This document shows, in pieces, positions 10,678-51,666 of a DNA stretch of 55,758 nucleotides (its first letter is position 1; every line of letters begins with the position of its first letter). The stretch covers positions 1 through 55,758 of IMG/VR virus record IMGVR_UViG_3300042922_000297. One strand, 5' to 3'. Origin of the DNA: a virus. Under the pieces are notes generated by a model. The model did not search any database, was not told where the DNA came from, and worked only from the letters and a program-made list of their open reading frames with translations. A program made the position numbers and the translations under genes.

Positions 10678-10687
10678 GAGTTAACCG

Positions 10688-28009: not shown

Positions 28010-29701
28010 GTGGCTGAACTGAAGCAGGATTGGCGACTCGGGCAGAAAGTACAGCCCGGGGATATGAACGCCGTCGCAGCGCAACTGAACGCCAACACGC
28101 AGGCCATCGAGGACGGCATCCCGACGTCCGTGGATTCCGCGTCTATAACCGATGCGGGTGAAGCCGGCAAGGTGTTAGTGCAGGCCGACACCGCGGATGA
28201 CGTACTCGACATCCTCGATGCCACCACCACCGGCCGTGACATCCTCACCGGCACACCCGAAGAAGCTGTTACGGCGCTCGGGGCCACTGAAACTGGCGCG
28301 GCGGTCCTCACCGGGGATGCGGCGGAGGGCCGCGCGGCGCTGAATGCGGTAGCGAAACTCCCAGCGGGGCACTACACGCCGACAGGGAAACCCAACGGCA
28401 CTGTCACAGCACTGGATAGCGGCCAGACAGTGGCGACGTTCGGCGATTCACCAGGTGTGGTGTCATCGGGGGTGTTGGTCACCACGGCTACCGGCTCGCC
28501 GCCACACGGCACCTACTACCAAGCCGACATGGGCGCGACAGTGCGCCGTATCGGTTGTGAGGTGAAGTGGCCGGCCAACGCGGTCGGAGCGCTGGCATTC
28601 GTGCTGCCAGTATCAGCGTGGGGTCCACCTGGTGGGCATCCGTCGGGGGATAACTCTGCGGGCGCGAACGCCGGGGTCCACCTCACCCTGTACGGCAACG
28701 GCATTTGGGATTGCGGCAACTGGAACGCCCTAGCCGGGACCGTCACAAGCTATGCGAGTAGCACCACACACGGCCGGTACGGCACCGTGTGGGACGGCGA
28801 GTTCCATGATGTCGAAATTTGGGTTGATCCCGACGCGGAGAAGATGACCGTCCGTTTCCCGGATGGTTCTTTCACGACGATCGAGAACGCCGCTGTTGGT
28901 GATGTGACGTCGTGGGTGATCTGGGAGCAGTTCGAGTCGAATACCGCGGATGTTCCGTGTGTGCTGCGGAATTTGTGGGCGGATACCGAGGCCCGGCGGG
29001 CAGATTCATTCGCTGTCACGAGGGTGGATATCGCTGAGGCTGTGGCCGCGATCCGCAAGGGGTACGACCTTGAGTATGTGACCACGTCCGGTGGCACAAA
29101 GACGATGACGGCGGCATCTCCTCAGATCCAAGTTCCTTTTGGTACCGCTGCCCACACGATTGTCCTTCCCGGGGATGTCAAAAAGGGCTACGGGGTCATA
29201 GTTTCTAACACGTCAACCGGCGTGGTGACGGTTAACTCGTCCGACGGAACGTTCGTCACGGCAATAGCTTCCAATGGTGAGGGCGTTTTCACGGCGTACG
29301 CGGACAATCCCGTTTTGGGGTCGAACTGGAAAGCCTCGCTTACTGCAACTACAAATGGTGTGCAGACGTTGACTCAAACGCGCCTAGATCCGCGGGTGAC
29401 ATCCACAACGTCCGCGTCGTCGTTGACCCCGTCCTACTCGTCCAAGGATCTGTACGTGTACACGGCGTTGGCGGCGAACCTCACCTTGAACGCACCGTCG
29501 GGCACTACGAACGGTGGGCGGCTGCGGCTCCGGATCAAGGACGACGGTGTGTCACGAACCCTGACGTGGAACGCGATCTACCGGGGCATCGGTGTCACAT
29601 TGCCTGCTGCGACGACGGCGGGGAAGTGGATGTACGTCGACATGAATTACAACCCCACGGATACCCGTTGGGATGTGACCGACGTGAAGATCGAGGCTTA
29701 G
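28010..29701 (+). CDS. Minor tail/fibre protein with shared N-terminal adaptor
   Basis: 563 residues. GTG at 28010 is preferred because TAGGAA precedes it and because the product then begins like the protein of 26700. After the adaptor (D-W-R-L-G-Q-K-V-Q-P-G-D-M-N-A-V) comes a helical shaft (35-125), then a jelly-roll-like domain (about 130-340, with P-P-G-G-H-P-S-G-D-N) and a C-terminal beta domain (about 360-563). The TAG stop overlaps the stop of the oppositely oriented lipoprotein gene. Confidence 0.78.
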   Translation: MAELKQDWRLGQKVQPGDMNAVAAQLNANTQAIEDGIPTSVDSASITDAGEAGKVLVQADTADDVLDILDATTTGRDILTGTPEEAVTALGATETGAAVLTGDAAEGRAALNAVAKLPAGHYTPTGKPNGTVTALDSGQTVATFGDSPGVVSSGVLVTTATGSPPHGTYYQADMGATVRRIGCEVKWPANAVGALAFVLPVSAWGPPGGHPSGDNSAGANAGVHLTLYGNGIWDCGNWNALAGTVTSYASSTTHGRYGTVWDGEFHDVEIWVDPDAEKMTVRFPDGSFTTIENAAVGDVTSWVIWEQFESNTADVPCVLRNLWADTEARRADSFAVTRVDIAEAVAAIRKGYDLEYVTTSGGTKTMTAASPQIQVPFGTAAHTIVLPGDVKKGYGVIVSNTSTGVVTVNSSDGTFVTAIASNGEGVFTAYADNPVLGSNWKASLTATTNGVQTLTQTRLDPRVTSTTSASSLTPSYSSKDLYVYTALAANLTLNAPSGTTNGGRLRLRIKDDGVSRTLTWNAIYRGIGVTLPAATTAGKWMYVDMNYNPTDTRWDVTDVKIEA

Positions 29702-30441
29702 CCGACCGGTTGGAGTGGTTGGCCGTCTTCAACAGCCCAGACGGTGTCGAAGTCGAATGTTGTTGATGCTGGTGGGGGTTTGATGTATTCCTCCCAGAAT
29801 GCGCGGTCGCCTAGGAGGCCGGTGGTGTCGACGGGGTGTGTGGATTCGTGGCCGGGCACAGTGACGGTGACTGTGTCGTCGGTCGCGGCGATGGCGAATG
29901 TGTAGTCCCGGCCGATCGTGAGCGGTGGGCTGAACACACCTTTCGCGACTGGCTCGAACGGGCCGCCCCGTCGCACCGTCAGTTCCCAGGTGGAGCGGTT
30001 GGCGGCGAAGTGCACCATATCCATCACCAGCCGATCGTCAGGTGTGATGGCCATCGCCAGGGTGGTGTCAGCATTGCCGTCGCGGATCTGCCGCCATTGT
30101 CCGGTTGTTCCCACGCTGCGGACGGTGCCGCGGAACTGGCGGGCCGCGTACACGGTGTCGTTCCCGGCGTAGGTGAACGCACCGTCTCGGATGAGTCCGT
30201 CGGTGGCTGCGGGCATCGGGAAGCGGTCTACGTACCCGGCGCGCATATCCCAACCGTCGCCCAGTCCCGCGGTGGTGTCGGGCCGGTTGAAGGTGTCGAA
30301 CCACGACGTCTGGACTGGTGGTGCTTGGGCTGTGGTGGTCGTCGTTCCGGTGGTGTCGGTGATCTTCGACTCGTACGGCGGTGGTTCCTTCGTGCAGCCG
30401 ACCAGCATCAGGGCCGTAATCAGCGTCCACGCAATTTTCAC
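29698..30441 (-). CDS. Phage-encoded lipoprotein with lectin-like ectodomain
   Basis: 247 residues from GTG at 30441. A short basic start, a hydrophobic segment and the lipobox L-V-G-C (Cys 16) show a lipoprotein signal. A Thr-rich linker leads to a jelly-roll-like domain starting F-D-T-F-N-R-P-D-T-T-A-G-L-G-D-G-W, similar in layout to the middle domain of the 24829 tail protein. It runs against the late genes, so it is not part of their transcript. A TACGGT box lies six bases before the GTG. This suggests expression from the prophage, perhaps to block adsorption of related phages (inference). Confidence 0.8.
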   Translation of the reverse strand: MKIAWTLITALMLVGCTKEPPPYESKITDTTGTTTTTAQAPPVQTSWFDTFNRPDTTAGLGDGWDMRAGYVDRFPMPAATDGLIRDGAFTYAGNDTVYAARQFRGTVRSVGTTGQWRQIRDGNADTTLAMAITPDDRLVMDMVHFAANRSTWELTVRRGGPFEPVAKGVFSPPLTIGRDYTFAIAATDDTVTVTVPGHESTHPVDTTGLLGDRAFWEEYIKPPPASTTFDFDTVWAVEDGQPLQPVG

Positions 30442-30447
30442 CCGTCC

Positions 30448-30453
30448 ACCGTA
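30448..30453 (-). promoter_or_regulatory. -10 box for the lipoprotein gene, leaderless arrangement
   Basis: On the minus strand TACGGT is followed by six bases and then the GTG start, so the transcript should begin at or next to the start codon. No clear -35. The same spacing recurs in the lysogeny region. Confidence 0.45.
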
Positions 30454-30493
30454 AAGCCCCACCCCCCGCACTGCTGCCTGAATGGAGGTTTCG

Positions 30494-31369
30494 ATGCTCG
30501 GAACCAACCAGTCCGACCTGTGCCAACTCGCCCCGGCGGATTTGGATCGTGTGTGCGCAGATATCGCGGCCTATGGGTTTGAGTCGGTGCGGTTCGCGGT
30601 GGATTGGGGGTGGCTGTCCAATCTGTGGGGGAGTGTGAATTACGGGCCGGTGGAGCGGGTCGCGAAGACTCTCGCGAAGCACAAGCTCATCCCGTTGCCG
30701 GCGGTGGGGATTCATTACCCGTGGAAACACTCACCGGAAGCCTTCGGGGCGTTCACTAAGAGGGTCGTCAGCATCTTCGGGCCGTTGCCCGCGTATGAGG
30801 TGTGGAACGAACCCAACCTTCCCGGGTTTGGTATCGGCACCCCCGCACAGTTCCTCACCTACCTGCGGGCCGCCGCACCTGTCATCCGGGCTGCCGGGTC
30901 CGCTGTGATCCACGGCGGGCTCGCCGCGTTCCCCGACCGTCGTGGCTGGTGGACACGGGACTACAGCCCCACCACCTGGCTAGGGGCACTGTATGCGGCG
31001 GGTGAGCGCAACGACTACGACCTGTTCGGCTACCACCCCTACAGCTTCGACACCGTCCAGAAGTGGTGTGATCCTGCTGGCCGCCCGTTCGGTATCGACC
31101 AAATCACACAGCTGGATGCGGCCCGCACACGCCGTGGCGACACCCGCCCCTACGCGTTCACTGAAATCGGGTACGACACCAACAAAGTCGATGCCGTCAC
31201 CGCAGCCCGCTACCTGTCCGCTCAGATGCCCGCCATGCGTGAACGGTCCAATCACAACTGGCTGTTCTGCTGGCGCGACACGGTTGGCGATGGCGGCAAA
31301 TACGGACTCGTCCACGCCAACAATGCGCCCAAACTCCCGCTGTACAACGCCGTCAGAGGCTTGCTGTGA
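30494..31369 (+). CDS. Glycoside hydrolase, TIM-barrel (clan GH-A-like)
   Basis: 291 residues. ATG 30494 is chosen because GGAGG (30484-30488) is correctly spaced; ATG 30482 would overlap the RBS. The sequence has F-A-V-D-W, Y-E-V-W-N-E-P-N with the probable acid/base Glu 106, G-Y-H-P-Y and T-E-I-G-Y with the probable nucleophile Glu 224, the order found in GH5/GH39-type hydrolases. No signal peptide, so it acts on the virion or during lysis, perhaps on arabinogalactan or capsule (inference). Confidence 0.8.
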   Translation: MLGTNQSDLCQLAPADLDRVCADIAAYGFESVRFAVDWGWLSNLWGSVNYGPVERVAKTLAKHKLIPLPAVGIHYPWKHSPEAFGAFTKRVVSIFGPLPAYEVWNEPNLPGFGIGTPAQFLTYLRAAAPVIRAAGSAVIHGGLAAFPDRRGWWTRDYSPTTWLGALYAAGERNDYDLFGYHPYSFDTVQKWCDPAGRPFGIDQITQLDAARTRRGDTRPYAFTEIGYDTNKVDAVTAARYLSAQMPAMRERSNHNWLFCWRDTVGDGGKYGLVHANNAPKLPLYNAVRGLL

Positions 31370-31518
31370 AGCTCGACCTGTACGGCACCGACCAACCAGG
31401 CTTCCGCAAACCCCGCGCCGGCCGCTGCCACCTATGCGGCCGGCCATGCCTCGAACACCCCGCGATCCGCCACCGCTTCTGGGCGCTCGTTGCCCTGCTC
31501 GTTTCATTTAAGCGGTAA
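31366..31518 (+). CDS. Small Cys-knuckle protein with C-terminal hydrophobic helix
   Basis: 50 residues from GTG (GTGA overlap with the hydrolase). C-H-L-C-G-R-P-C is a likely metal site and F-W-A-L-V-A-L-L-V-S-F is a short membrane-type segment. Unassigned. Confidence 0.55.
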   Translation: MKLDLYGTDQPGFRKPRAGRCHLCGRPCLEHPAIRHRFWALVALLVSFKR

Positions 31519-31543
31519 CTCCTCACACGGCTGCATATAGCCG

Positions 31544-31573
31544 TTGACCTGCGCTGACTCATTTCAGATGTAT
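31544..31573 (+). promoter_or_regulatory. Candidate promoter of the lysis operon
   Basis: TTGACC (31544-31549), an 18-base spacer and ATGTAT (31568-31573) lie in the 167-base gap before the lysis genes. A small hairpin ACGGCT/AGCCGT (31527-31544) sits directly upstream. Confidence 0.4.
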
Positions 31574-31622
31574 CTGCGCCTTTCCTTAACGGGCCGCGTT
31601 TCTGCGCCCGTGCTTTAAGCCA

Positions 31623-31662
31623 GCAGCCGGCCCCGCACACCCCCCGAGGCGGGGTCGGCTGC
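31623..31662 (+). terminator. Strong hairpin before the lysis genes
   Basis: GCAGCCGGCCCCGC (31623-31636) pairs with GCGGGGTCGGCTGC (31649-31662), 14 bp with one G-T pair. No T-run follows and an RBS (CGGAGA) comes soon after, so it may be an attenuator, RNA-processing or stability element rather than a true terminator. Confidence 0.45.
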
Positions 31663-31685
31663 CCACGCCCCGAACGGAGACCACC

Positions 31686-31988
31686 ATGGGATTCCTCGAC
31701 ACCATCGTTGATGCCGTCTGGAAACGGCTGAAGCCAGAGATCGACGAAATGCAGGCCACCGCGAAAACCGAACTGGACGAGTGGCAGGTCATCGCCGAAC
31801 AACAGTTGGATGAGTGGCGCACCGAAGCCATGGCCATGCTCAAAGAAGCCCTCCCCGAGATGGCCGGTGCCATCGCTGAGCAGGCAGTCAAGACAGTCTT
31901 CGAACACACGCAGGTCGATGAAGCCGCCGACGCCGTGTCCGGTGTCATCACCGACATCGTCGGACGCCTCGGATTCGGCCTCCGATGA
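31686..31988 (+). CDS. Hypothetical amphipathic helical protein upstream of lysin A
   Basis: 100 residues, almost wholly helical, with regularly spaced Trp and acidic residues (E-L-D-E-W-Q...Q-L-D-E-W-R, a repeated unit) and a hydrophobic C-terminal half. Its ATGA coupling to lysin A hints at a lysis or endolysin-chaperone role (inference); mycobacteriophages often carry such a small gene here. Confidence 0.65.
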   Translation: MGFLDTIVDAVWKRLKPEIDEMQATAKTELDEWQVIAEQQLDEWRTEAMAMLKEALPEMAGAIAEQAVKTVFEHTQVDEAADAVSGVITDIVGRLGFGLR

Positions 31989-33184
31989 CCTACGGCCTAC
32001 CGACCGGGACGCGCATCACATACGGCGCCAAGGGTTTCCCGCAGTGGGTGTACGACCTCGGCAAGGCGTTCAACCTCAAAGCCTCCACCTATCCGGGGCA
32101 TCAGGAAACGAACCACGCCGAACCCGGCTTCGTCGCCAACCCGCAGAAACTCAACCGCGGCATCGACTGGGCTGGCTCCGTCGCCGATATGCAGCGGTTC
32201 GCCGACTACCTCATGGGCATCAAATCATCCCTGGAGCAGGTCATCTGGGAGAACCCGACCAACGGGCGGCGGGCCGGTGTCGCGGGCGGCAAAGACGTCA
32301 CCGCGTCCGCTTACTACGCCTACGACGGTGGCTACAACGGCCACCGAGACCACGTACACACACGCCAATCAGCACCCATACCCCTCCCGTCAGGAGCACC
32401 CGTGGCCGACAACAAACCCGCGTTCAACGAGTTCCCGATCTGGTCGAAGAACAACAGCGCCCGCGCATCCAAGGTCGACGCCTTTCTTCTGCACACACAG
32501 GAAGGTGGCGGCGGAAACGCAGCCGCGGAGAACCTCGCCAAGTGGTTCCAGAACGCCAACAACGTCTCCTACCACTACACCATCAGCCAGGCCGCTGACG
32601 GCGGAGTGACCGTAGTCGATTGCGTCGACACCGACCGGGCATCCTGGTCCGTGCTGTCCGCGAACGGGCGATCCATCAACCTGTGCTTCGCCGGCTCCCG
32701 CGCAGCGTGGACCCGGGTGGACTGGCTGAAGCAAGCCAAAGCGATCGACGTGGCCGCCTACCTCGCGGTGCAGGACGCCAGGAAGTACGGCTTCCCGACC
32801 ACGGTTATCGCACCGCCGTACACAGGACGCCTTCCTGGTATCTCGGATCACCGCTACGTGACCAAGGTGCTCGGCGACGGCACCCACACCGATGTCGGCG
32901 ACGGCTTCCCCTGGGACGTGTTCTCCGCGGCGGTGGCTAAGTACAGCGGCAAGCAAGCACCTCCCGTGCCACCTCCCCCCGGCACCACACCCACTCCCGT
33001 GCCGCCCCTGTCCGACAGTCAACTGTTGCAGCAGATCGCCAACGATGTCGCCTGGCTCCGTCAACAGCATGACGTTGGCCTCGACGCGTGGGGCGAAGAC
33101 GGCGACCTCGGCCGCAACGCCAAAGGTCAGCGCCGCACCCTCCGCGCCGGGCTGGCCGCACTCATCCGCAAGGTTGGTGCCTGA
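31985..33184 (+). CDS. lysA: Lysin A (endolysin): peptidase-like plus amidase domains
   Basis: 399 residues. Residues 1-128 hold G-H-Q-E-T-N-H near 39-44, R-G-I-D-W near 59 and G-H-R-D-H-V-H near 119-125, a probable metallopeptidase domain. Residues about 145-315 form an amidase_2/PGRP domain with likely zinc ligands in F-L-L-H-T (His 170), S-D-H-R (His 289) and the H-T-D-V-G-D-G-F-P-W segment. A Pro-rich linker (325-342) leads to a helical C-terminal tail. It cuts peptidoglycan after holin action. Confidence 0.92.
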   Translation: MTYGLPTGTRITYGAKGFPQWVYDLGKAFNLKASTYPGHQETNHAEPGFVANPQKLNRGIDWAGSVADMQRFADYLMGIKSSLEQVIWENPTNGRRAGVAGGKDVTASAYYAYDGGYNGHRDHVHTRQSAPIPLPSGAPVADNKPAFNEFPIWSKNNSARASKVDAFLLHTQEGGGGNAAAENLAKWFQNANNVSYHYTISQAADGGVTVVDCVDTDRASWSVLSANGRSINLCFAGSRAAWTRVDWLKQAKAIDVAAYLAVQDARKYGFPTTVIAPPYTGRLPGISDHRYVTKVLGDGTHTDVGDGFPWDVFSAAVAKYSGKQAPPVPPPPGTTPTPVPPLSDSQLLQQIANDVAWLRQQHDVGLDAWGEDGDLGRNAKGQRRTLRAGLAALIRKVGA

Positions 33185-34194
33185 TGGCTTGGGCGCCGCC
33201 GTCGAAGCCGGGTGACACTCACCCGTCTGTAGCGGAGGCGAAGAAGAAGCTGCGGGTCTACAGCTACGGCAAAACCCTCGGCGATTCCGACGTCTACAGC
33301 GTCGAATTCGGTGTCGCGCTCACCCAGTTCAAAGTCAACCGCAACGACCAGATCATGCGCGGCTCCGTCCGAGACATGCCCGGCATGCCCCTCAACACCG
33401 AACTGGACTGGGCCACAAAGAAGAACCTGCGGATCCTGCCCGAGCAGAACATTCCGCCCGCCGTGTCCCGGAAAGTCGTCGTCACCATCAACGGGCACAT
33501 GGGCGGCCTGTTCGACGGGCCCGCTTACTTCACCGCCCGCGTGTTGGAGGAACAGGGCCGCGTTCGTGTGCAGCCCGTCGGCTACAACAACACGAAGAAG
33601 CCGTTCGATAACGCCAGCGGTGTCCGCGAGATGGACCGAATCGTCAACGATCCCATCATCCTGCCGCAAGGCACCGACTGGGCCATCCTCTCCCATTCTC
33701 AAGGGTCGGTGGTGGAGTGCGACTTCTACGAGCAGCGCATCGAACCCAACCGCGACCGCTGGCCCTACAGCCACTACAAGGGTGGTGTCCGATTCGGAAA
33801 CCCCCGCCGGCCCATGAACACAGTCGCCCCCTGGATCCTGGACCCGCCACCACAAGGCACCGAAGGCCTCGACCCGAACTGCCTCAAACAGGCGACACCC
33901 GGCGTCATGGAATGCAGCAGGGACGGCGACCTCTACGCCAACAAGAAACCAGGACTCGCCGCCGACTACAAAGAAGCCGTCTACATGGCCGTCTGCCGCG
34001 GCAAATTCATGGGAGCCAACACGCTCGCCGCCGAACTGGGGGAACTCGCAACCCGATTCAGCAACCCCATGGAGATATTCGCGCTGTTCCAGGCCATCAT
34101 CTCCGGCGTCTCTGGGCTCATCACATTGCGTGAACACGGCGAGTTTGACCTTCGCCCCTGTATCGATCACACCGCTCGAATCCTCGGCGTCTGA
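33184..34194 (+). CDS. lysB: Lysin B (mycolyl-arabinogalactan esterase)
   Basis: 336 residues. The ATG shares one base with the lysin A stop. An N-terminal peptidoglycan-binding-like region (about 12-90) precedes an alpha/beta hydrolase with V-V-V-T-I-N-G-H and the nucleophile elbow S-H-S-Q-G-S (Ser 172; the first Gly of G-x-S-x-G is Ser here), a D near R-D-G-D-L-Y, and a His near the C-terminal I-D-H-T-A-R-I-L. It detaches the mycolic-acid outer layer, which ties the host to the Mycobacteriales. Confidence 0.92.
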   Translation: MAWAPPSKPGDTHPSVAEAKKKLRVYSYGKTLGDSDVYSVEFGVALTQFKVNRNDQIMRGSVRDMPGMPLNTELDWATKKNLRILPEQNIPPAVSRKVVVTINGHMGGLFDGPAYFTARVLEEQGRVRVQPVGYNNTKKPFDNASGVREMDRIVNDPIILPQGTDWAILSHSQGSVVECDFYEQRIEPNRDRWPYSHYKGGVRFGNPRRPMNTVAPWILDPPPQGTEGLDPNCLKQATPGVMECSRDGDLYANKKPGLAADYKEAVYMAVCRGKFMGANTLAAELGELATRFSNPMEIFALFQAIISGVSGLITLREHGEFDLRPCIDHTARILGV

Positions 34195-34205
34195 AAGGCC
34201 CTGAC

Positions 34206-34442
34206 ATGTGGACTAAGCAGTTTTGGCAGGACGCGATCGAGAGGGCTACGAAGACGTTCGCCCAAACCCTGGCAGCGGTCCTCGGGGCTGGCGCGGTGGA
34301 TGTGCTGGCCGTCGACTGGAAATCCGCTTTGGCTGTCGCTGCTGGCGCCGGGCTGGTGTCGGTGCTGACCTCGCTCGGGTCCGAACCGTTCGGGCGCGGC
34401 GGCACAGCATCCCTGACCAAGGCTGTTGAGCCTGCGCCGTGA
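34206..34442 (+). CDS. Holin, r1t-like
   Basis: 78 residues. The opening W-T-K-Q-F-W-Q-D-A-I-E-R-A-T-K-T-F-A-Q is typical of the r1t holin family. Two membrane segments (about 18-36 and 40-57) follow. It permeabilises the inner membrane and times lysis. Confidence 0.85.
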   Translation: MWTKQFWQDAIERATKTFAQTLAAVLGAGAVDVLAVDWKSALAVAAGAGLVSVLTSLGSEPFGRGGTASLTKAVEPAP

Positions 34443-34924
34443 TGGTCCGGCGGATCAGATGGATCGGGCACCGGGTAGCGAACCGGTTCTTCGCCATCCT
34501 CGACTCCGAGGGTGTCGCGTTCTTCCAAACCCTCGTCTACACCCACCTCGCCGTCGGTGGCGCGTACGGACTGCTCGTCGCCCGCGGCGTCCCCGACACA
34601 GTCGGTGACGCACTAGGCAACTCCGGTGACACCGCCTGGCTGATGCTGTGCATGGGTGCCACGATCTGCATTGCTGGGAAGGTGATGTCGTGGTCGCACC
34701 GCCGCTACTGGGTGCGCACCGCCGGCCTCTACCTCCAGTTTGCGGGGGATCTGTGCGCGTTCGGGTCGTTCACCGGGTACGTGCTGTCGACGTGGCAGGA
34801 AAGCAACTGGGGGCAACCGTTGGTGGCGGTGTGGGTGTTCGCGGCCCTGGCCGATTGCGCGTTCTTTCTGTGCTGGCGTGACCTGCGCCGGATCCGTGAA
34901 GCTGAGAGGGCGGGGAAGTCGTGA
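34439..34924 (+). CDS. Four-helix membrane protein of the lysis cassette
   Basis: 161 residues from GTG 34439 (ATG 34442 possible). Four membrane segments lie at about 30-49, 65-84, 96-118 and 127-146, with a charged C-terminal tail. A second membrane protein after the holin is common in actinophage lysis cassettes and may be a holin partner or antiholin (inference). Confidence 0.75.
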   Translation: MMVRRIRWIGHRVANRFFAILDSEGVAFFQTLVYTHLAVGGAYGLLVARGVPDTVGDALGNSGDTAWLMLCMGATICIAGKVMSWSHRRYWVRTAGLYLQFAGDLCAFGSFTGYVLSTWQESNWGQPLVAVWVFAALADCAFFLCWRDLRRIREAERAGKS

Positions 34925-35232
34925 ATGCTGCGCTGGCGACGGTGATCGCTTCGGCTTTGGGCGCTATCGGCCTGATTATCGGGGCAGTGTTGTCGTCGTA
35001 CCTCAACCGGCACAAGGATGATGCTGCGGTCGCCGATCAGGTGTCGAAAGCGTGGACACCGTTGGTGTCTGAGCTGCGGACTGAGGTTGCGGAGACGAAG
35101 AGGGAGTGTGTGGATTGCCGTAAGGAGTTGGGGCAGGTGAAGCGGGCGTTGCGTACGGCTATCAGTGCGTGGCATTCGAAGGATCCTGACTTGATTGACG
35201 CGGCGATCGAAGCGGCGCGGGACCTGTTGTGA
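34921..35232 (+). CDS. One-helix membrane protein with coiled-coil tail
   Basis: 103 residues from GTG (GTGA overlap). A single N-terminal membrane helix (about 5-27) is followed by a charged helical region with C-V-D-C. This N-in, spanin- or holin-like topology and the position suggest a third lysis membrane protein. Confidence 0.7.
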   Translation: MNAALATVIASALGAIGLIIGAVLSSYLNRHKDDAAVADQVSKAWTPLVSELRTEVAETKRECVDCRKELGQVKRALRTAISAWHSKDPDLIDAAIEAARDLL

Positions 35233-35337
35233 TGGTTGCGGGCGCGGCGATACTCGCCTACGCCATCACACGGTAGTAAACTGGCCGGGTGCCCAGGTGG
35301 GGCGCGGAACCGTATCCCTCCACCGAAAGGCAATCCC

Positions 35338-35604
35338 ATGCAACGCATCACCATCGGCCGCTACAAGCCCACTCCCGGCGGTCCGTTCACCGACCTCCCC
35401 TTTCCGGTCGAAAACGAGGGCACGGTTTACTCCACGACTGACGTTTCGGCGTACTTCGACGGCTGGGTTGAAGGCGTCCGTGATGACGGGTCCACGTGGA
35501 TCATGTGGCTCGACTCCAAGGGAAACCCGACCGTGTTCTACGCCAACCGGGATGAAGACGGCGGCGTGGACGATGCCAGTCGAATCGATCTGTCACTAGA
35601 CTGA
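35338..35604 (+). CDS. Hypothetical protein ending the late operon
   Basis: 88 residues. ATG 35338 is chosen for the RBS GAAAGG eight bases upstream; an in-frame GTG at 35236 gives a poor low-complexity N-terminus. Beta-rich, with D-G-S-T-W-I-M-W-L-D and acidic C-terminus. Unassigned. Confidence 0.65.
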   Translation: MQRITIGRYKPTPGGPFTDLPFPVENEGTVYSTTDVSAYFDGWVEGVRDDGSTWIMWLDSKGNPTVFYANRDEDGGVDDASRIDLSLD

Positions 35605-35691
35605 TTCCCATCGATCTACCCCTAAGACGGGTAACCGCGTAAGCGGTCCAGCACGGCAGCTCTGCTGGGCTCCATGAACCTGCCACCTATC

Positions 35692-35729
35692 GCCGCCCCT
35701 GACTTCGGCTGGGGGCGGCCTTCCTTCGT
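35692..35729 (+). terminator. Terminator of the late/lysis operon
   Basis: GCCGCCCC (35692-35699) pairs with GGGGCGGC (35712-35719), loop TGACTTCGGCTG, followed by CTTCCTTCGTTG. It is the expected end of the rightward late transcript. Confidence 0.65.
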
Positions 35730-35764
35730 TGTGTGTGCGTGCCTTCGCAACTGATTGCGGTGTG

Positions 35765-36040
35765 GTGCGCGATGATATTGACGTGAAGGTCACTCTGCGC
35801 ACCGGGGATCGCGCCATACTGATCGGTGCCGCAGCGATCATCTGGTACGAACGAGCTGTCGCCGACGACGCCGACCTCATCTCCTCCCGCGTGTCCGCAT
35901 ACCGGCAACACCTCCCCGGCCGCTTAGTGACTGACGCCGTGATCCTCGCAACCGCACTCCACCTCGCCGAAGCGCTGTCGCCTGAGTGGGATCTGTACCA
36001 CGTCGCCATGCGCTGGTTGCGCCGGCAAGTCGCCGAGTAA
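35765..36040 (+). CDS. Small hydrophobic protein, DUF7427-like
   Basis: 91 residues from GTG 35765; GTG 35783 is the alternative. Two hydrophobic stretches flank a basic loop (A-I-L-I-G-A-A-A-I-I-W-Y-E, and L-V-T-D-A-V-I-L-A-T-A-L-H-L-A-E). The W-Y-E...L-I-S-S-R-V...A-L-H-L pattern recalls a small protein family often found between lysis and integrase genes of actinophages. Upstream at 35747-35760 lies the palindrome CGCAA-CTGA-TTGCG, a possible operator. Confidence 0.6.
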   Translation: MRDDIDVKVTLRTGDRAILIGAAAIIWYERAVADDADLISSRVSAYRQHLPGRLVTDAVILATALHLAEALSPEWDLYHVAMRWLRRQVAE

Positions 36041-36046
36041 ACGGTA

Positions 36047-36074
36047 TTGACAACTGAATGGTAAGCGGTATCGT
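36047..36074 (+). promoter_or_regulatory. Sigma-A promoter giving a probable leaderless mRNA
   Basis: TTGACA (36047-36052), 16-base spacer, TATCGT (36069-36074). The expected start site falls at about 36081-36082, exactly at the ATG at 36082. This is the best promoter consensus in the window. Confidence 0.65.
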
Positions 36075-36081
36075 TAACGCC

Positions 36082-36264
36082 ATGACAGCCTCCCGACGAA
36101 CTCGCATCACGCTTCAGAACGTCTACGACTGCACGTGCGTATACAGTTGTCGCGATCATCCCGCAACGATGTGCGGATTGTCCGGCGAGTGGCACGTGCA
36201 TCCCCGCGTGAACGGCGACTTCGGCCCATGCCCCATCCACCCCGACGCCCCCGGCGACCTGTGA
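36082..36264 (+). CDS. Small Cys/His-rich protein, probably leaderless
   Basis: 60 residues. The ATG at 36082 is chosen because an upstream ATG at 36058 would lie inside the promoter. D-C-T-C-V-Y-S-C-R-D-H and C-G, C-P-I-H make a likely zinc site. GTGA coupling links it to the ribbon-helix-helix gene. Confidence 0.6.
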   Translation: MTASRRTRITLQNVYDCTCVYSCRDHPATMCGLSGEWHVHPRVNGDFGPCPIHPDAPGDL

Positions 36265-36446
36265 GCCCCGGCGGTCGCCCCGAAATCGGGCCACCCATCA
36301 ACATCCGCCTCGGTGACGACCTCCTCGCCCTCGTAGACGACTACGCCGCGCACAACAGCCAGACCCGCGCACAAGCCATCCGGTTCCTACTCACCGCGGC
36401 CTTGTCCGAACGCCACGGCAGCGCTCCGTCCGGACAGACTCGATGA
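36261..36446 (+). CDS. Ribbon-helix-helix (CopG/Arc-type) regulator
   Basis: 61 residues from GTG (GTGA overlap). P-I-N-I-R-L-G-D-D-L-L-A-L-V-D-D-Y is the ribbon and first helix; the second helix is T-R-A-Q-A-I-R-F-L-L-T. Such dimers bind short operator repeats. No toxin gene follows, so an autonomous regulator is more likely than an antitoxin. Confidence 0.7.
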   Translation: MSPGGRPEIGPPINIRLGDDLLALVDDYAAHNSQTRAQAIRFLLTAALSERHGSAPSGQTR

Positions 36447-36487
36447 CCGCCATGCGCTACATACGCCGCAACGTCGGCGGGCAGGAA

Positions 36488-36493
36488 TAGACT
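36488..36493 (+). promoter_or_regulatory. -10 box TAGACT, leaderless arrangement
   Basis: TAGACT is followed by six bases (AGGCAG) and the ATG at 36500. The block TAG-A-CT-AGG reappears as TAGGCTAGG before 37181. No clear -35. Confidence 0.45.
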
Positions 36494-36499
36494 AGGCAG

Positions 36500-36958
36500 A
36501 TGGCCAAGGGCATCGAGGGCACAGCTTTCCCGCTTGACCTCATGCCGAACTGGCGGCTCCCAAGCCAACTTGGATTCGGCCCAGGAATGCAGCCCGACCC
36601 CTACGCGCTCGGCGATCTGTGGGTTCGGCGGCACAGAGAAGGCCCCAACGTCGAGTACATCACCGTAAACGACGACGCCAGCCCCCAGGTACTTATCGGT
36701 GATGAATTACTCCGGGACATCCAGTTCGACATCCGCCGGTACAACACCAGCGCCTGGGTGACCCTTGAGAACCTTTGGGACCACACTCCGTCCGACTGCC
36801 CGACATGCACGTGGGCCAAGGACCACCTGAGTGATCGGCCCAGCCACTGTTTCTCGGGAATGCTGATGCTGATCAATGCCCGGAACCGGCAGCTGATCTA
36901 CCGCATCGGCCAGTACCGCCCTCAAAGCAGAACGTGGGAAGCGACGTGGCCCGACTAG
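36500..36958 (+). CDS. Hypothetical protein in the lysogeny region
   Basis: 152 residues with no RBS but a -10-like box six bases upstream. Mixed alpha/beta; C-P-T-C-T-W near residue 95 and C-F-S-G further on could bind metal. Its own promoter and terminator suggest expression from the prophage. Function unknown. Confidence 0.7.
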   Translation: MAKGIEGTAFPLDLMPNWRLPSQLGFGPGMQPDPYALGDLWVRRHREGPNVEYITVNDDASPQVLIGDELLRDIQFDIRRYNTSAWVTLENLWDHTPSDCPTCTWAKDHLSDRPSHCFSGMLMLINARNRQLIYRIGQYRPQSRTWEATWPD

Positions 36959-37035
36959 CGCCGCCGTCTCCATAGCCACACGCCGAGCGCCACTAGCACT
37001 GCCACGCCCACTGGTCCTACCGGCGACTTAACCAT
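36955..37035 (-). CDS. Possible 26-residue membrane peptide
   Basis: On the minus strand ATG 37035 opens 26 codons whose product has one hydrophobic helix (V-G-P-V-G-V-A-V-L-V-A-L-G-V-W-L-W) ending in four Arg. Its stop overlaps the stop of the convergent 36500 gene (CTAG). The frame is open further upstream, so it could also be chance. Confidence 0.25.
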   Translation of the reverse strand: MVKSPVGPVGVAVLVALGVWLWRRRR

Positions 37036-37093
37036 CCACCGTTGATACCCCACAGACAGCCGGTGTAACCCGTGTAGTCGTCCACCTGTGACC

Positions 37094-37133
37094 GCCCCGC
37101 TAGATCCCCGTGATCTGGCGGGGCTGCTTTTTT
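37094..37133 (+). terminator. Strong rho-independent terminator
   Basis: GCCCCGCTAGATC (37094-37106) pairs with GATCTGGCGGGGC (37112-37124), 13 bp with one G-T pair and a five-base loop, followed by TGC and six T. The clearest intrinsic terminator in the window; it closes the 36500 gene. Confidence 0.85.
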
Positions 37134-37168
37134 GTGCGTGGTGTATGCACACCGGAGGGGTTGTGGAG

Positions 37169-37174
37169 TAGGCT
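37169..37174 (+). promoter_or_regulatory. -10 box TAGGCT, leaderless arrangement
   Basis: TAGGCT, six bases, then ATG 37181. It follows the terminator directly, so this gene needs its own promoter. Confidence 0.45.
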
Positions 37175-37180
37175 AGGTGT

Positions 37181-37465
37181 ATGAACACCAGAGCCGCGTC
37201 ACATGACACCACGTGCGGCGTGGGGAGCAGTGGAAGTTGTTTCGTCCCGTGGTGCACCTGCCATTGCCACGACGCGGGTGTTGTGACACCTACACTGCGG
37301 TCTATGCCGAATCGGCCCCGCACACCCATCCGAGGCATCCGCGTTCCGGACGAGTTATGGGCCGCAGCGCAGCAGGTCGCAGCGGACAAAGGGGAGACCG
37401 TTTCCGATGAGGTGCGGCGGTCCCTTGAGCGGTACGTCAAGAAAGTGCGGAGGGGGAAGGCATGA
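37181..37465 (+). CDS. Ribbon-helix-helix regulator with Cys/His N-terminal extension
   Basis: 94 residues. The N-terminal 41 residues hold C-F-V-P-W-C-T-C-H-C-H-D, a dense metal-binding cluster. The C-terminal half is a CopG/Arc domain (I-R-G-I-R-V-P-D-E-L-W-A-A-A). An internal in-frame ATG at 37304 would make only the DNA-binding half; it is preceded by TACACT (37291-37296) and seven bases, so two forms may be produced from two promoters. Confidence 0.65.
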   Translation: MNTRAASHDTTCGVGSSGSCFVPWCTCHCHDAGVVTPTLRSMPNRPRTPIRGIRVPDELWAAAQQVAADKGETVSDEVRRSLERYVKKVRRGKA

Positions 37466-37656
37466 ACGCCAAACTGGACGACTGGTTGCAGGATGGCCCC
37501 GCGTTGGTTCACAAGGGCGGGGCGTGGCGCATCGAGCCGGGGTGGACGGGCATCGGCGCTGAACTGTTCCAACGCACACCAACGGGCGGGTGGACGGTTC
37601 TGTTGGTGTTCGATTCCGCGGCCGAAGCTGAGGCTTACGTGGAGCGGGTGCGGTAG
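37462..37656 (+). CDS. Hypothetical protein
   Basis: 64 residues, ATGA-coupled to the regulator. W-R-I-E-P-G-W-T-G-I-G then a strand V-L-L-V-F-D and a helix A-A-E-A-E-A-Y-V-E-R suggest a small alpha/beta fold. Unassigned; possibly the partner of the upstream regulator. Confidence 0.6.
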   Translation: MNAKLDDWLQDGPALVHKGGAWRIEPGWTGIGAELFQRTPTGGWTVLLVFDSAAEAEAYVERVR

Positions 37657-37658
37657 CC

Positions 37659-37847
37659 GTGAGTTTCACGTCCCGCTTAGGCGGTGCCGCGCTCACTCAA
37701 TGTGGTTACTTGTCGCAGATCGCGTCCATGCCCGATGCCACGGAGATAGCCACCGACGGACCGCTACGAAGCCTGCGCGCTGATCGCTTAATCTGGGACG
37801 CAGGCCGATTGCGCGATGACCAGCGATCCTGTGGACGTGCCGCCTGA
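37659..37847 (+). CDS. Doubtful small ORF
   Basis: 62 codons from GTG, two bases after the previous stop. No RBS, weak codon pattern and no motif. Kept only because the stretch has no better gene; otherwise the segment 37657-37920 appears to be non-coding between convergent genes. Confidence 0.3.
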   Translation: MSFTSRLGGAALTQCGYLSQIASMPDATEIATDGPLRSLRADRLIWDAGRLRDDQRSCGRAA

Positions 37848-37920
37848 TCCCGCGACGTCCTGTACGGGCCACCACTCACCACCCACTGCACCGTACGAAC
37901 CGGACCCGACGAACGCTAAG

Positions 37921-38235
37921 TCAGTGCCGCCGGCCGCGCAACGTGTGCTGAATCGCGAACGCCGTCCAGATGACAGTCCACATCCCACCCCACAGGAACC
38001 ACAGCACACCCATCCCGACCGCGATACTGCCCGACTCCTCATCGGCCTGCGCGACCAACGGAATGCCGAACAGCAGCGTCCCGAGTAACGAGAACACCGC
38101 GAGCAGCCCAAACCCGTAATGGATGGTGAACCGGCGCTCGGCAGGTGCTGCGGGTGGTGGCAGGGCGAGCCACTGCTGGCCGTCCCAGTAGCGCTGCGCG
38201 CCGGACGGGTCGGGATACCAGCCGGGCGCAGTCAC
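37921..38235 (-). CDS. DUF2510 membrane protein
   Basis: 104 residues from GTG 38235. The N-terminus P-G-W-Y-P-D-P-S-G...R-Y-W-D-G-Q-Q-W is the DUF2510 signature. Two membrane helices follow (about 44-62 and 73-97). Such proteins are common in actinobacteria and near actinophage integrases. Opposite orientation and its own promoter suggest prophage expression, perhaps altering entry of other phages (inference). An eight-residue leader ORF ends at its GTG. Confidence 0.82.
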   Translation of the reverse strand: MTAPGWYPDPSGAQRYWDGQQWLALPPPAAPAERRFTIHYGFGLLAVFSLLGTLLFGIPLVAQADEESGSIAVGMGVLWFLWGGMWTVIWTAFAIQHTLRGRRH

Positions 38236-38258
38236 GCCAGCACCGCCGTTTCTGTCAT
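38232..38258 (-). CDS. Eight-residue leader peptide before the DUF2510 gene
   Basis: Minus-strand ATG 38258 encodes M-T-E-T-A-V-L-A and its TGA overlaps the GTG of the DUF2510 gene. With the -10 box six bases upstream of the ATG, the ribosome could start leaderless on the small ORF and reinitiate on the GTG. Confidence 0.4.
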   Translation of the reverse strand: MTETAVLA

Positions 38259-38264
38259 GGATGG

Positions 38265-38270
38265 ATCGTA
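38265..38270 (-). promoter_or_regulatory. -10 box TACGAT for the DUF2510 gene
   Basis: On the minus strand TACGAT is followed by six bases and the leader ATG at 38258, the same layout as other lysogeny-region genes. Confidence 0.45.
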
Positions 38271-38411
38271 ATTGTCGATCATGACATTCACCGCCTGATT
38301 CCCTATCTGCCGTGTTGTCGGCAACAACATGGCGTTGCGTTGGTGCTGGTGGGTCCGGGTGGCTCGTTGTTTTTCCCGGTTACGTATCCGCAGGTGGTGA
38401 TACAAAAGACC

Positions 38412-38447
38412 AGGTGGGCAAGGGGTTCGAATCCCCTTAGCTCCACC
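38412..38447 (+). other. attP: Phage attachment site (attP core) carrying a tmRNA/tRNA 3' end
   Basis: A complete T-arm (AGGGG TTCGAAT CCCCT, 38421-38437) is followed by TAGCTCC-A-CC (38438-38447), the acceptor 3' strand, discriminator and CC. The rest of the RNA gene is absent. This is how integrating phages restore the host gene they enter. The ending AGCTCCACC is typical of tmRNA (ssrA), so tmRNA is the favoured target; a tRNA is possible. The integrase starts 64 bases downstream. Confidence 0.8.
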
Positions 38448-38499
38448 GTTGACCTGCTAAAACAGGGGTCCAAATACGAAACAACGGCACAAAACAACA

Positions 38500-38505
38500 T
38501 ATGCT
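38500..38505 (+). promoter_or_regulatory. -10 box TATGCT of the integrase gene, leaderless arrangement
   Basis: TATGCT is followed by GTTGGG and the ATG at 38512. No purine-rich RBS precedes the ATG, so leaderless translation is likely. Confidence 0.5.
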
Positions 38506-38511
38506 GTTGGG

Positions 38512-39678
38512 ATGGCGTCCATTCGTGAGGTCCCAAGGAACGACGGCACCACCGCACACACCGTCCTCTACCGCCTCGATGGCAGGCAGAGAACGCTCGT
38601 CTTCGACGACCCGAAGGCCGCCGAAGTCTTCAGGGACACCATCAACGTCCACGGCCCGAAACGTGCGATGGAGATGCACAACATCGACCCTGAGCCACGC
38701 CGGCGCAACAAAGTCCATGTGATGACCGTCGCCGAATGGGTCCGCCACCACATCGACCACCTCACCGGCGTCGAACAGACCACCATCGACAAATACGACG
38801 ACTACCTGAAGAACGACATCGAACCCCACCTCGGCCACATCCCACTCAAGGAACTATCGAGCGACGACCTCGCTCGATGGGTCAAACACATGGAAACCCA
38901 CGGCGGGCGCAAGGGCACCGGGCACGCCCCGAAGACCCTCGCCAACAAATACGGGTTCCTCTCCGGTGCGCTGAATGCCGCCGTGACACGCAAACCGAAA
39001 CCGTTGATCGAGTCCAACCCGGCGGCAGGCCGCAAACTCTCCAGGGCCGAAGCGCCCGACTCCGAAGATGACGAAGACATCCGAATCCTCACCCACGACG
39101 AGTTCGACGTCCTACTCGATGCTGTCACCGACTACTGGAAGCTGCTGATCGAGTTCATGGTCACCACCGGCCTACGGTGGGGGGAGGCCGCCGCCCTGGA
39201 GCCTAAGCACGTGAACCTCGCGGACGGGACGATCAAGATCCGGCAGGCGTGGAAGTATTCGCGCACGAACGGCTACTACCTCGGTCCTCCGAAGACGAAG
39301 CGGTCCCGTCGGACGGTGGACGTTCCCACGGAGATGCTGGATCGCCTGGACCTGTCGGACGAGTTCGTGTTCATGAACACCACCGGGGGCCCTGTCCGGT
39401 ATCACGGGTTCAAGCGCAGGGTGTGGGATGCCGCGGTGAAGAAGTCCGGCCTGGACCCGCGCCCCACTCCGCACGATCTGCGGCACACGTACGCGTCGTG
39501 GCAGCTCATCGGTGGTACTCCTATCACGGTGGTGTCGAGGCAGCTCGGTCACGAGAGCATTCAGGTCACGGTCGACATCTACGGCGACGTGGACAGGGCG
39601 TCGGCGAAGGTGGCATCGGAGTACATGTCCCGGACGCTGGCTGCGCGGAAGCAGCCAAACCCTAAACCTCAACTCTAG
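38512..39678 (+). CDS. int: Tyrosine integrase
   Basis: 388 residues. An N-terminal arm-binding domain (1-60), a SAM-like core-binding domain (about 70-180) and a catalytic domain are visible. Catalytic residues are Arg 222 (G-L-R-W-G-E), His 321 and Arg 324 (H-D-L-R-H-T-Y), His 347 (L-G-H-E-S) and nucleophile Tyr 357 (D-I-Y-G-D-V). It recombines attP, just upstream, with the host attB. Confidence 0.96.
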   Translation: MASIREVPRNDGTTAHTVLYRLDGRQRTLVFDDPKAAEVFRDTINVHGPKRAMEMHNIDPEPRRRNKVHVMTVAEWVRHHIDHLTGVEQTTIDKYDDYLKNDIEPHLGHIPLKELSSDDLARWVKHMETHGGRKGTGHAPKTLANKYGFLSGALNAAVTRKPKPLIESNPAAGRKLSRAEAPDSEDDEDIRILTHDEFDVLLDAVTDYWKLLIEFMVTTGLRWGEAAALEPKHVNLADGTIKIRQAWKYSRTNGYYLGPPKTKRSRRTVDVPTEMLDRLDLSDEFVFMNTTGGPVRYHGFKRRVWDAAVKKSGLDPRPTPHDLRHTYASWQLIGGTPITVVSRQLGHESIQVTVDIYGDVDRASAKVASEYMSRTLAARKQPNPKPQL

Positions 39679-39777: not shown

Positions 39778-40053
39778 ATGTTGGAAAACGAAAACGGCCG
39801 CGCCCCCGGTATGTTCGGAAGCCAGATCGACAAGGCGCTCGCCCTAATGCCTGACGCCGACGGCGAAGCCAACCTAGATGAGCACGTTCGCTGGGAACTG
39901 CACGCAGTCCTAAGCCGATTGTGCCTAACCGACTTCACCACCAGAGAGGTCATGGCCCTCCTTGCCGTCCTTTGTCCCATCCACTCGCGTGTGATCCGGC
40001 AGCATAACGGCCCCGAGATTATCGGGCCGGTTATCCAGCTGGTCCGCACGTAA
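39778..40053 (+). CDS. Hypothetical protein overlapping the repressor gene antisense
   Basis: 91 residues with RBS GGAAGG. Helical, with H-V-R-W-E-L-H-A-V-L-S-R-L and F-T-T-R-E-V-M-A-L-L-A-V-L. Its last 129 bases are antisense to the 3' end of the minus-strand repressor gene. Similar small proteins occur near actinophage immunity genes; function unknown. Confidence 0.6.
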   Translation: MLENENGRAPGMFGSQIDKALALMPDADGEANLDEHVRWELHAVLSRLCLTDFTTREVMALLAVLCPIHSRVIRQHNGPEIIGPVIQLVRT

Positions 40054-40455
40054 CCGAGCCTCCTGGGCTTCCGCTTCAGCCGATGCTCCCGCCGCCGCGG
40101 CCGAATCACGCAGGTGGCGCAGCAGTGCCAGCACAGATTCTTTGTCTCGGTTGGAGAGTGTGGTGTCGAGCTTGACCGCTTGCTCGGGGGTGGGCAGCTC
40201 ATGCTGGGGAAGATGGACCCCCATGCTTTCGATGGCGGCGACAGCAACCTGGGACGGTGCGACCCGTAGGCCGGCTGCGAGGGCGAGGATGACTTCGCCC
40301 TTGATGGACACCACCGGATTGCGGAATCGCGAGATGTTGGATTTCGATAGGACATGGCCCTTCTCCTTTGCGTTACGCACCAGGTCGGGGTCGGACCAGT
40401 CGTTGGCGTCTTTGACGCCGTCGATCAGCCGTGCGAGCTGGTGGGCTGTTGCCAT
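39925..40455 (-). CDS. Immunity repressor candidate (HTH)
   Basis: 176 residues. An XRE-like N-terminus (about 5-75: Q-L-A-R-L-I...V-L-S-K-S-N-I-S-R-F-R-N-P) with recognition helix S-K-S-N-I-S-R-F, then a helical region (V-K-L-D-T-T-L-S-N-R-D-K-E-S-V-L-A-L-L) and a polar Ala/Glu-rich tail. No LexA-type Ser-Lys peptidase signature, so induction would need an antirepressor, present at 41030. Divergent from the Cro-like gene across a 255-base control region. Confidence 0.78.
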   Translation of the reverse strand: MATAHQLARLIDGVKDANDWSDPDLVRNAKEKGHVLSKSNISRFRNPVVSIKGEVILALAAGLRVAPSQVAVAAIESMGVHLPQHELPTPEQAVKLDTTLSNRDKESVLALLRHLRDSAAAAGASAEAEAQEARLRADQLDNRPDNLGAVMLPDHTRVDGTKDGKEGHDLSGGEVG

Positions 40456-40491: not shown

Positions 40492-40601
40492 CTGGGGTGG
40501 GCACCGAAACTCTCCAGATGTTGGGCACTAGAAGTATCGAAAGATTCTTCTGGATAGTCGCAGGTGGGCGGCTATCTCGCAAAATACATCGGTGTAGTTA
40601 C

Positions 40602-40630
40602 TTGCGCCGTGGGCACCGGACCTGTATCAA
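40602..40630 (+). promoter_or_regulatory. Early rightward promoter candidate (PR-like)
   Basis: TTGCGC (40602-40607), a 17-base spacer that contains TGGGCACC, and TATCAA (40625-40630). TGGACAGG repeats start directly at the expected transcription start, so a bound repressor would block it. Confidence 0.55.
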
Positions 40631-40663: not shown

Positions 40664-40710
40664 ATGTAATGTCGACCACGTCGCAGTTATCACTACTCGG
40701 GGAGGTGTAT

Positions 40711-40971
40711 ATGGAACTCCGGGATCGCAAGAAGCTTGCTCGGTTGATGATCGTGCAGGAGGAAACGCACCGATCACTGGCGCGGGCCGCAGGGTGGAAG
40801 TCCCATTCGTATCTCGGCCGGCTGCTGCGGGGCGAGGTCAAGACGCTGGACACTGACGCGGCGTTGCGCATCGCGCACAAACTGCGCGTACCTGTCGATG
40901 ATCTCTTTTTGATCCGAGTGGACAGCATTGATGTCCAGCGCGAACCGAAAAATAAGTCGTCCGCCGCATAA
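40711..40971 (+). CDS. Cro-like HTH protein
   Basis: 86 residues from ATG 40711 with RBS GGGGAGG; a start at ATG 40669, also with an RBS, would add 14 residues. M-E-L-R-D-R-K-K-L-A-R-L-M then R-S-L-A-R-A-A-G-W-K-S-H-S-Y-L-G-R-L-L-R-G-E is a typical actinophage early XRE regulator, ending in V-D-D-L-F. First gene of the rightward early operon. Confidence 0.8.
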   Translation: MELRDRKKLARLMIVQEETHRSLARAAGWKSHSYLGRLLRGEVKTLDTDAALRIAHKLRVPVDDLFLIRVDSIDVQREPKNKSSAA

Positions 40972-51283: not shown

Positions 51284-51666
51284 GCCGGCCGCAGGGGTTC
51301 ACCCCCGCCACCCGCGCCCTGATCGCCGACCGGGCATCCGACTACAACGGCTGGCCTGTCTGTGAGGTGATGGCGGTCTGTCAAGGCGTCGCAGCTGAGG
51401 CGGTGCATCACAGGAGGCCCAGAGCAGCCGGCGGTAGCAAGCGCCCGGACACGAACAAGGCGGCGAACGGGATCGCCACCTGTAATGCCGACCATGAGTG
51501 GATTGAGTCGCACCGCGAGGAGGCGTTGCTTAACGGCTGGTTGGTGCTGCAATGCGAAGCCCCCGCCACCATCCCCGCCCTCCGGCGCGGTGTCTGGGTG
51601 CTGTTGGACAACGACGGCGGCTGGGTGCGGTGTGCGGCTCCGGGCGTACAGGGAGAAGCATCATGA
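51280..51666 (+). CDS. HNH endonuclease-like protein (accessory region)
   Basis: 128 residues, ATGA-coupled. C-E-V-M-A-V-C, then V-H-H-R-R-P-R-A-A-G-G, N-K-A-A-N-G-I-A-T-C and H-E-W-I-E-S-H follow HNH order (His-His pair, Asn, His). A nicking or homing-type nuclease is likely; a second one besides the terminase-side HNH. Confidence 0.78.
   Translation: MSRPQGFTPATRALIADRASDYNGWPVCEVMAVCQGVAAEAVHHRRPRAAGGSKRPDTNKAANGIATCNADHEWIESHREEALLNGWLVLQCEAPATIPALRRGVWVLLDNDGGWVRCAAPGVQGEAS

What the first reader, a model, noticed from the sequence alone, without database searches (positions are those of the whole stretch)
30441..38512. Recurrent leaderless-start signature for prophage-expressed genes
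A TANNNT box lies 6-7 bases before the start codon of the lipoprotein (TACGGT-6-GTG, minus), 36082 (TATCGT-7-ATG with TTGACA), 36500 (TAGACT-6), 37181 (TAGGCT-6), internal start 37304 (TACACT-7), the DUF2510 leader (TACGAT-6, minus) and integrase (TATGCT-6). Early and late operon genes instead have purine-rich RBSs or ATGA coupling. This suggests that lysogenic genes use leaderless mRNAs, perhaps because they tolerate changes of initiation machinery in the lysogen.
Basis: partly seen in the sequence, partly recalled or inferred. Interest (0 to 1): 0.7.

Follow-up and report, generated by a model that had tools for sequence, protein, structure and literature searches.

The report
Leaderless promoters around a phage integrase
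Several genes in the central part of this mycobacteriophage-like genome have the ordinary mycobacterial promoter box placed so close to the start codon that their messages should have no leader; the pattern is real and recurs in relatives, but it marks genes with their own promoter rather than genes used only in the dormant (prophage) state.

Summary
All seven TANNNT-6/7-start sites are present. In an unbiased scan, 8 of the window's 10 such sites with an open frame of at least 40 codons lie in 30.4-38.6 kb (expected 1.1, p 2e-5). No gene called elsewhere in the window carries the box. In 47 cluster F relatives the same spacing is 4.8-fold enriched in the 3.5 kb before integrase (p 2e-13) and absent from the early operon.

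The geometry is the standard SigA leaderless promoter, and leaderless mRNAs make up about 24% of M. smegmatis transcripts. It follows position at the head of a transcription unit, not the lysogenic state. The divergent early gene cro has the box in 32 of 47 relatives and in Sbash, while the repressor has it in only 9 of 47 and not in this window. Two of five operons shown by RNA-seq to be expressed in Sbash lysogens lack it. Where an HNH gene sits directly before integrase, HNH carries the box and integrase does not. Nothing supports changed translation initiation in lysogens.

Verdict: a real new example of a known layout, of moderate use for finding transcription units and correcting start codons.

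The parts
30448..30453 (-). -10 box TACGGT, 6 nt before GTG 30441
   Evidence: start of a 247-codon frame with a lipobox (LVGC); reverse-strand gene before the lysis cassette, the same place where relatives have reverse-strand HTH genes with TANNNT-7-start
29698..30441 (-). predicted lipoprotein gene, leaderless candidate
   Evidence: no PHROGs or Pfam family
35277..35282 (+).
   Evidence: and sequence
35783..36040 (+). 85-codon gene with a degenerate box GATGAT 6 nt before GTG; further leaderless candidate
   Evidence: homologue at 67% in L106 with an A/T-rich box in the same place; preceded by a terminator-like hairpin near 35710
36047..36074 (+). TTGACA-16-TATCGT promoter, 7 nt before ATG 36082
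   Evidence: the only sigma-70-type match with both hexamers in 35.2-40.8 kb (one found, 1.5 expected in shuffles)
36082..36264 (+). 60-codon Cys-rich frame, overlapping (GTGA) the ribbon-helix-helix gene 36261-36446
   Evidence: phrog_4738 1.3e-17 for the downstream gene; no homologue of the 60-mer
36488..36493 (+). -10 box TAGACT, 6 nt before ATG 36500
   Evidence: the gene 36500-36958 has a 63% identical homologue in Firehouse51, which is operon-internal there and has no box
36500..36958 (+). 152-codon gene of unknown function, leaderless candidate
37094..37132 (+). intrinsic terminator (13-bp stem plus T run) closing the 36500 unit just before the next promoter
37169..37174 (+). -10 box TAGGCT, 6 nt before ATG 37181
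37291..37296 (+). -10 box TACACT, 7 nt before ATG 37304, the more likely start of the Arc-type repressor
   Evidence: phrog_6506 match begins at residue 42, this ATG; homologues in Gordonia phages have GATAAT-7-ATG, CACAAT-7-GTG and CATACT-7-GTG at the equivalent codon (read from the sequences printed)
38265..38270 (-). -10 box TACGAT, 6 nt before ATG 38258 of an 8-codon frame overlapping DUF2510 GTG 38235
   Evidence: DUF2510 homologues in MichelleMyBell and Charlie have TAATAT-8-ATG at their own start
37921..38235 (-). DUF2510 protein
   Evidence: Pfam PF10708 34.5 bits (cut-off 24); phrog_1712 8.7e-23
38417..38443 (+). presumed attP core (AAGGGGTTCGAATCCCCTTAGCTCCAC), the same in cluster F phages
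38500..38505 (+). -10 box TATGCT, 6 nt before integrase ATG 38512
   Evidence: TAGAAT-6/7-ATG in 41 of 47 cluster F integrases
38512..39678 (+). tyrosine integrase
   Evidence: 67% identical to cluster F integrases
39925..40455 (-). immunity repressor by position and weak profile match; no TANNNT at 6-7, purine-rich RBS (counter-example)
   Evidence: phrog_12831 5.4e-4; synteny with MooMoo gp42 and Juniper1 gp42
40669..40971 (+). Cro-position HTH gene, AGGAGG RBS, no box in this window
   Evidence: HTH_3 1e-4

Best explanation
The central region of this temperate mycobacteriophage-like genome (end of the lysis cassette to the integrase, on both sides of attP) is split into several short transcription units. 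Many begin at their own host SigA promoter whose -10 box lies 6-7 nt before the first start codon, so transcription starts on that codon and the mRNA is translated without a leader, as for about a quarter of mycobacterial transcripts. Downstream genes in the same unit rely on overlap (ATGA/GTGA) or an RBS. The layout belongs to the first gene of a unit; it is common in the lysogeny-expressed region because that region consists of many small units with their own promoters, and it is also used by the early gene cro in relatives. Shown: box position, chance statistics, conservation before integrase homologues. Inferred: that these are active SigA promoters, where transcription starts, leaderless translation, and expression in the lysogen.
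For: Box positions. Enrichment only at spacing 6-7 and only in the central region of the window. The same in 47 cluster F loci: 34 against 7.0 expected (p 2e-13) for -3.5 kb to integrase, 0 against 6.6 expected in the early operon. TAGAAT-6/7-ATG before integrase in 41 of 47; the six exceptions have an HNH gene directly upstream that carries TAACAT-6-ATG and ends in a TGATG overlap with integrase. A homologue of the 36500 gene that is operon-internal in Firehouse51 has no box. cro has TANNNT-7-ATG in 32 of 47 relatives and in Sbash. A terminator stands between the 36500 unit and the next promoter. Host precedent: TANNNT 7-12 nt upstream of 73% of M. tuberculosis primary TSSs (PMC3898074), 24% leaderless in M. 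smegmatis (PMC6448022).
Against: No transcription start is mapped for this phage. The host is inferred to be mycobacterial only from similarity. Some boxes may be chance: 37181 is an alternative start of the same frame, and 38258 heads only an 8-codon frame. Cluster F records share ancestry, so their counts are not fully independent even after merging identical contexts.
Confidence: 0.82

Rival explanations
1. Leaderless starts are a signature of lysogenic genes as such, selected because translation initiation differs in the lysogen.
For: The box is concentrated in the region where lysogenically expressed genes lie in relatives (location of such genes from PMC6426596). In M. tuberculosis leaderless mRNAs increase in growth arrest (PMC3898074).
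Against: The window's repressor lacks the box; cro has it more often than the repressor in relatives; Sbash lysogenic operon heads 30 and 35 lack it while gene 44 at the Cro position has it; cluster O has it at other operons (PMC4351075).
Confidence: 0.08
2. The boxes are promoters but the proteins are translated from other, RBS-bearing starts further downstream, so that the mRNAs are in effect leadered and the box-linked start codons are coincidental.
For: The TAAACT box before 35338 serves an RBS-bearing gene 49 nt further on. The DUF2510 gene begins 23 nt after its box-linked ATG in another frame. A weak AGGA lies upstream of 36500.
Against: Integrase and Arc-type homologues align from the box-linked codon; no SD tetramer upstream of 30441, 37304 or 38512.
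Confidence: 0.07
3. Chance: an AT-richer, partly intergenic region yields TANNNT boxes near start codons.
Against: Only spacings 6-7 are enriched, in the window and in relatives; shuffles of the same upstream DNA never reach the observed count.
Confidence: 0.03

Closest known systems
Leaderless SigA transcripts of mycobacteria (PMC3898074; PMC6448022)
   Same: TANNNT -10 box, start of transcription expected on the first base of an ATG or GTG, no RBS, no required -35 box
   Different: Here on a phage genome and inferred from sequence only
Predicted leaderless SigA-like promoters PL1, PR2 and PL2 of cluster O mycobacteriophages (PMC4351075)
   Same: Phage operon heads with transcription start on the first codon
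   Different: Not tied to an integration region there; here the box is concentrated around attP and the integrase
Adephagia P90 (HicAB-like region, PMC11373665)
   Same: Predicted leaderless phage gene with its own promoter
   Different: Single toxin-antitoxin gene in a cluster K phage
Lambda cI from PRM (own knowledge, not looked up here)
   Same: A lysogenic gene with a leaderless mRNA
   Different: There the repressor; here the repressor lacks the TANNNT layout, while integrase and accessory genes have it

Membership tests
Mycobacterial SigA leaderless promoter | TANNNT (or ANNNT) -10 element about 6-7 nt before the transcription start | tested here: met
   spacing 6-7 to the start codon, the enriched spacing
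Mycobacterial SigA leaderless promoter | Transcription starts on (or within 5 nt of) the start codon | not testable with these tools
   needs 5'-end mapping
Mycobacterial SigA leaderless promoter | No Shine-Dalgarno upstream of the start | tested here: met
   no SD tetramer upstream of 30441, 37304 and 38512; 36500 has a weak AGGA further upstream
Mycobacterial SigA leaderless promoter | Host uses leaderless translation | tested here: inconclusive
   host inferred as mycobacterial from integrase and terminase relatives; host literature
   window repressor lacks it; 9 of 47 relatives have it
   cro in 32 of 47 relatives and Sbash gene 44
   0 against 6.6 expected in the early operon of relatives; this also fits plain promoters

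The most novel reading that the evidence does not exclude
Translation in the lysogen (or a prophage-encoded factor) favours leaderless mRNAs, and temperate mycobacteriophages exploit this to keep accessory prophage genes on while their leadered lytic genes are translated less well.
Probability: 0.03. Interest if true: 0.75.

Novelty: new member of a known kind. Interest (0 to 1): 0.3.

Why it matters
If confirmed by 5'-end mapping, the rule gives a cheap way to find transcription units in the poorly annotated centre of temperate mycobacteriophage genomes, where defence and accessory genes lie, and to correct start codons. Likely corrections already visible: Cro of Juniper1 probably starts 34 codons upstream of its annotated start, and the Arc-type repressors of Ecliptus and Kamaru start downstream of theirs. 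It would not reveal a new mechanism.

Tried and rejected
Closest-relative search with the integrase alone in viral contigs found nothing; the alignment found 44 loci, nearly all cluster F-type. The genome-contig scan gave only distant integrases. The Cys-rich 60-mer at 36082 has no homologue; a resemblance to host cysteine-responsive leaderless leader peptides was considered from memory and not pursued, as its cysteines are scattered. Accessions tried for BPs and Che9c were not in the collection; no paper in the library held all four of mycobacteriophage, lysogen, RNAseq and leaderless. A simple first-gene versus internal-gene comparison in the window was uninformative because my gene caller left gaps in the early operon, so many internal genes counted as first genes (4 of 39 against 1 of 35, p 0.36); the region-based and spacing-based tests were used instead. 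A box hit in L005 near cro lies in another frame and was not counted.
Full report
What the window is. The window is a virus record of 55,758 bases. The order is terminase, portal, capsid, tape measure, tail genes, lysins, integrase, repressor (minus), Cro-position gene, antirepressor and early genes. The integrase is 67% identical to those of cluster F mycobacteriophages, the terminase is up to 91% identical to an IMG/VR phage record, and the presumed attP core is the same as in cluster F phages. It is a temperate phage, most likely of a mycobacterium.

The observation. All seven boxes are present at the stated spacing. The same reading frame is counted twice at 37181 and 37304, and the site at 38258 heads an 8-codon frame rather than the DUF2510 gene. 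An unbiased scan of every ATG or GTG with at least 40 codons, both strands, was run for box-to-start spacings 0-40. In 30.4-38.6 kb spacing 6+7 gives 8 sites where the other 39 spacings predict 1.08 (p 1.7e-5). In the rest of the window there are 2 where 4.15 are predicted, and both lie antisense to called genes. Dinucleotide shuffles of the 60 nt before ten central starts average 0.11 hits, maximum 2 in 3000, against 5 observed.

Relatives. Forty-seven loci around cluster F-type integrases were scanned the same way, counting identical contexts once. From -3.5 kb to the integrase start there are 34 sites at spacing 6-7 against 7.0 expected (p 2e-13). Upstream, around the lysis cassette, there are 18 against 7.4, many of them short reverse-strand genes in the position of this window's lipoprotein gene. 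In the early operon there are 0 against 6.6. Sixteen stretches from relatives found by terminase show the same peak at 6 and 7 (17 and 22 against about 7 per spacing). Integrase has TAGAAT-6/7-ATG in 41 of 47 records.

Position, not lysogeny. Four results separate the two. First, in the six records where integrase lacks the box, an HNH endonuclease gene precedes it, has TAACAT-6-ATG, and its stop overlaps the integrase ATG (TGATG): the box is at the head of the unit. Second, the gene at 36500 has a 63% identical homologue in Firehouse51 that is operon-internal (its ATG overlaps the stop of the gene before it), and there no box precedes it. Third, the divergent early gene at the Cro position has TACAGT-7-ATG or TACATT-7-ATG in 32 of 47 relatives, whereas the repressor has the layout in only 9, and not in this window. 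Fourth, RNA-seq of a Sbash lysogen defined five lysogenic gene groups (PMC6426596). Of their heads, gene 39 has TAATAT-7-ATG at an in-frame start 9 nt downstream, gene 34 has TAGGGT-8-ATG at an in-frame start 39 nt upstream of its RBS-bearing start, the repressor gene 43 has only the degenerate CAGACT-6-ATG, and genes 30 and 35 have nothing at 6-8; gene 42, inside the repressor-integrase group, has TAGCTT-8-ATG. Gene 44, at the Cro position and not among the lysogenic groups, has TATCTT-7-ATG. That cro is a lytic gene in the other relatives is inferred from its position ahead of the antirepressor and early operon.

Supporting anatomy. A 13-bp intrinsic terminator at 37094-37124 closes the 36500 unit just before the TAGGCT and TACACT promoters, and another hairpin near 35710 precedes a gene at 35783 with a degenerate box GATGAT-6-GTG. 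For the Arc-type repressor, the profile match begins at residue 42, the ATG at 37304, and Gordonia phage homologues show GATAAT-7-ATG (Phistory), CACAAT-7-GTG (Ecliptus) and CATACT-7-GTG (Kamaru) at the equivalent codon (read from the sequences). So 37304 is probably the real start, and the annotated starts of Ecliptus and Kamaru are probably too far upstream. DUF2510 homologues in MichelleMyBell and Charlie have TAATAT-8-ATG at their start, so the 8-codon frame in the window is either a coupled leader or the remains of such a start after a one-base change.

Known background. TANNNT is the SigA -10 element found upstream of 73% of M. tuberculosis primary starts (PMC3898074), and 24% of M. smegmatis transcripts are leaderless (PMC6448022). 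Leaderless promoters have been predicted for operons of cluster O mycobacteriophages (PMC4351075) and in Adephagia (PMC11373665). The finding is therefore a well-supported instance of a known layout. What is added here is the spacing statistics, the conservation before integrase, and the evidence that the layout follows unit heads, including early lytic ones. The proposed reason for it (altered initiation in lysogens) is unsupported.

Noticed in passing
L003 (Juniper1) 10622-10724: The annotated Cro start (GTG 10724) is probably 34 codons too far downstream; an in-frame ATG at 10622 has TACATT 7 nt before it and encodes a longer HTH protein, as in L020 and L104.
   Followed up: partly
L102 (Firehouse51) about 2998-3441: An unannotated frame encodes a 63% identical homologue of the window's 36500 gene, overlapping the stop of annotated gene 40.
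   Followed up: partly
36082-36446: A 60-codon Cys-rich frame overlaps (GTGA) a ribbon-helix-helix gene; the 37181 frame likewise joins a Cys-rich stretch to an Arc-type domain.
   Followed up: partly
40497-40511 and 40609-40623: A 15-nt direct repeat (GTGGGCACCG...) lies in the repressor-cro interval, a possible operator pair.
   Followed up: no
51663-52427: Queuine tRNA-ribosyltransferase family gene (phrog_1279, E 7e-103).
   Followed up: no
35277-35338: A TAAACT box gives a 49-nt leader before an RBS-bearing gene, with an out-of-frame 50-codon GTG frame starting at the expected transcription start.
   Followed up: no
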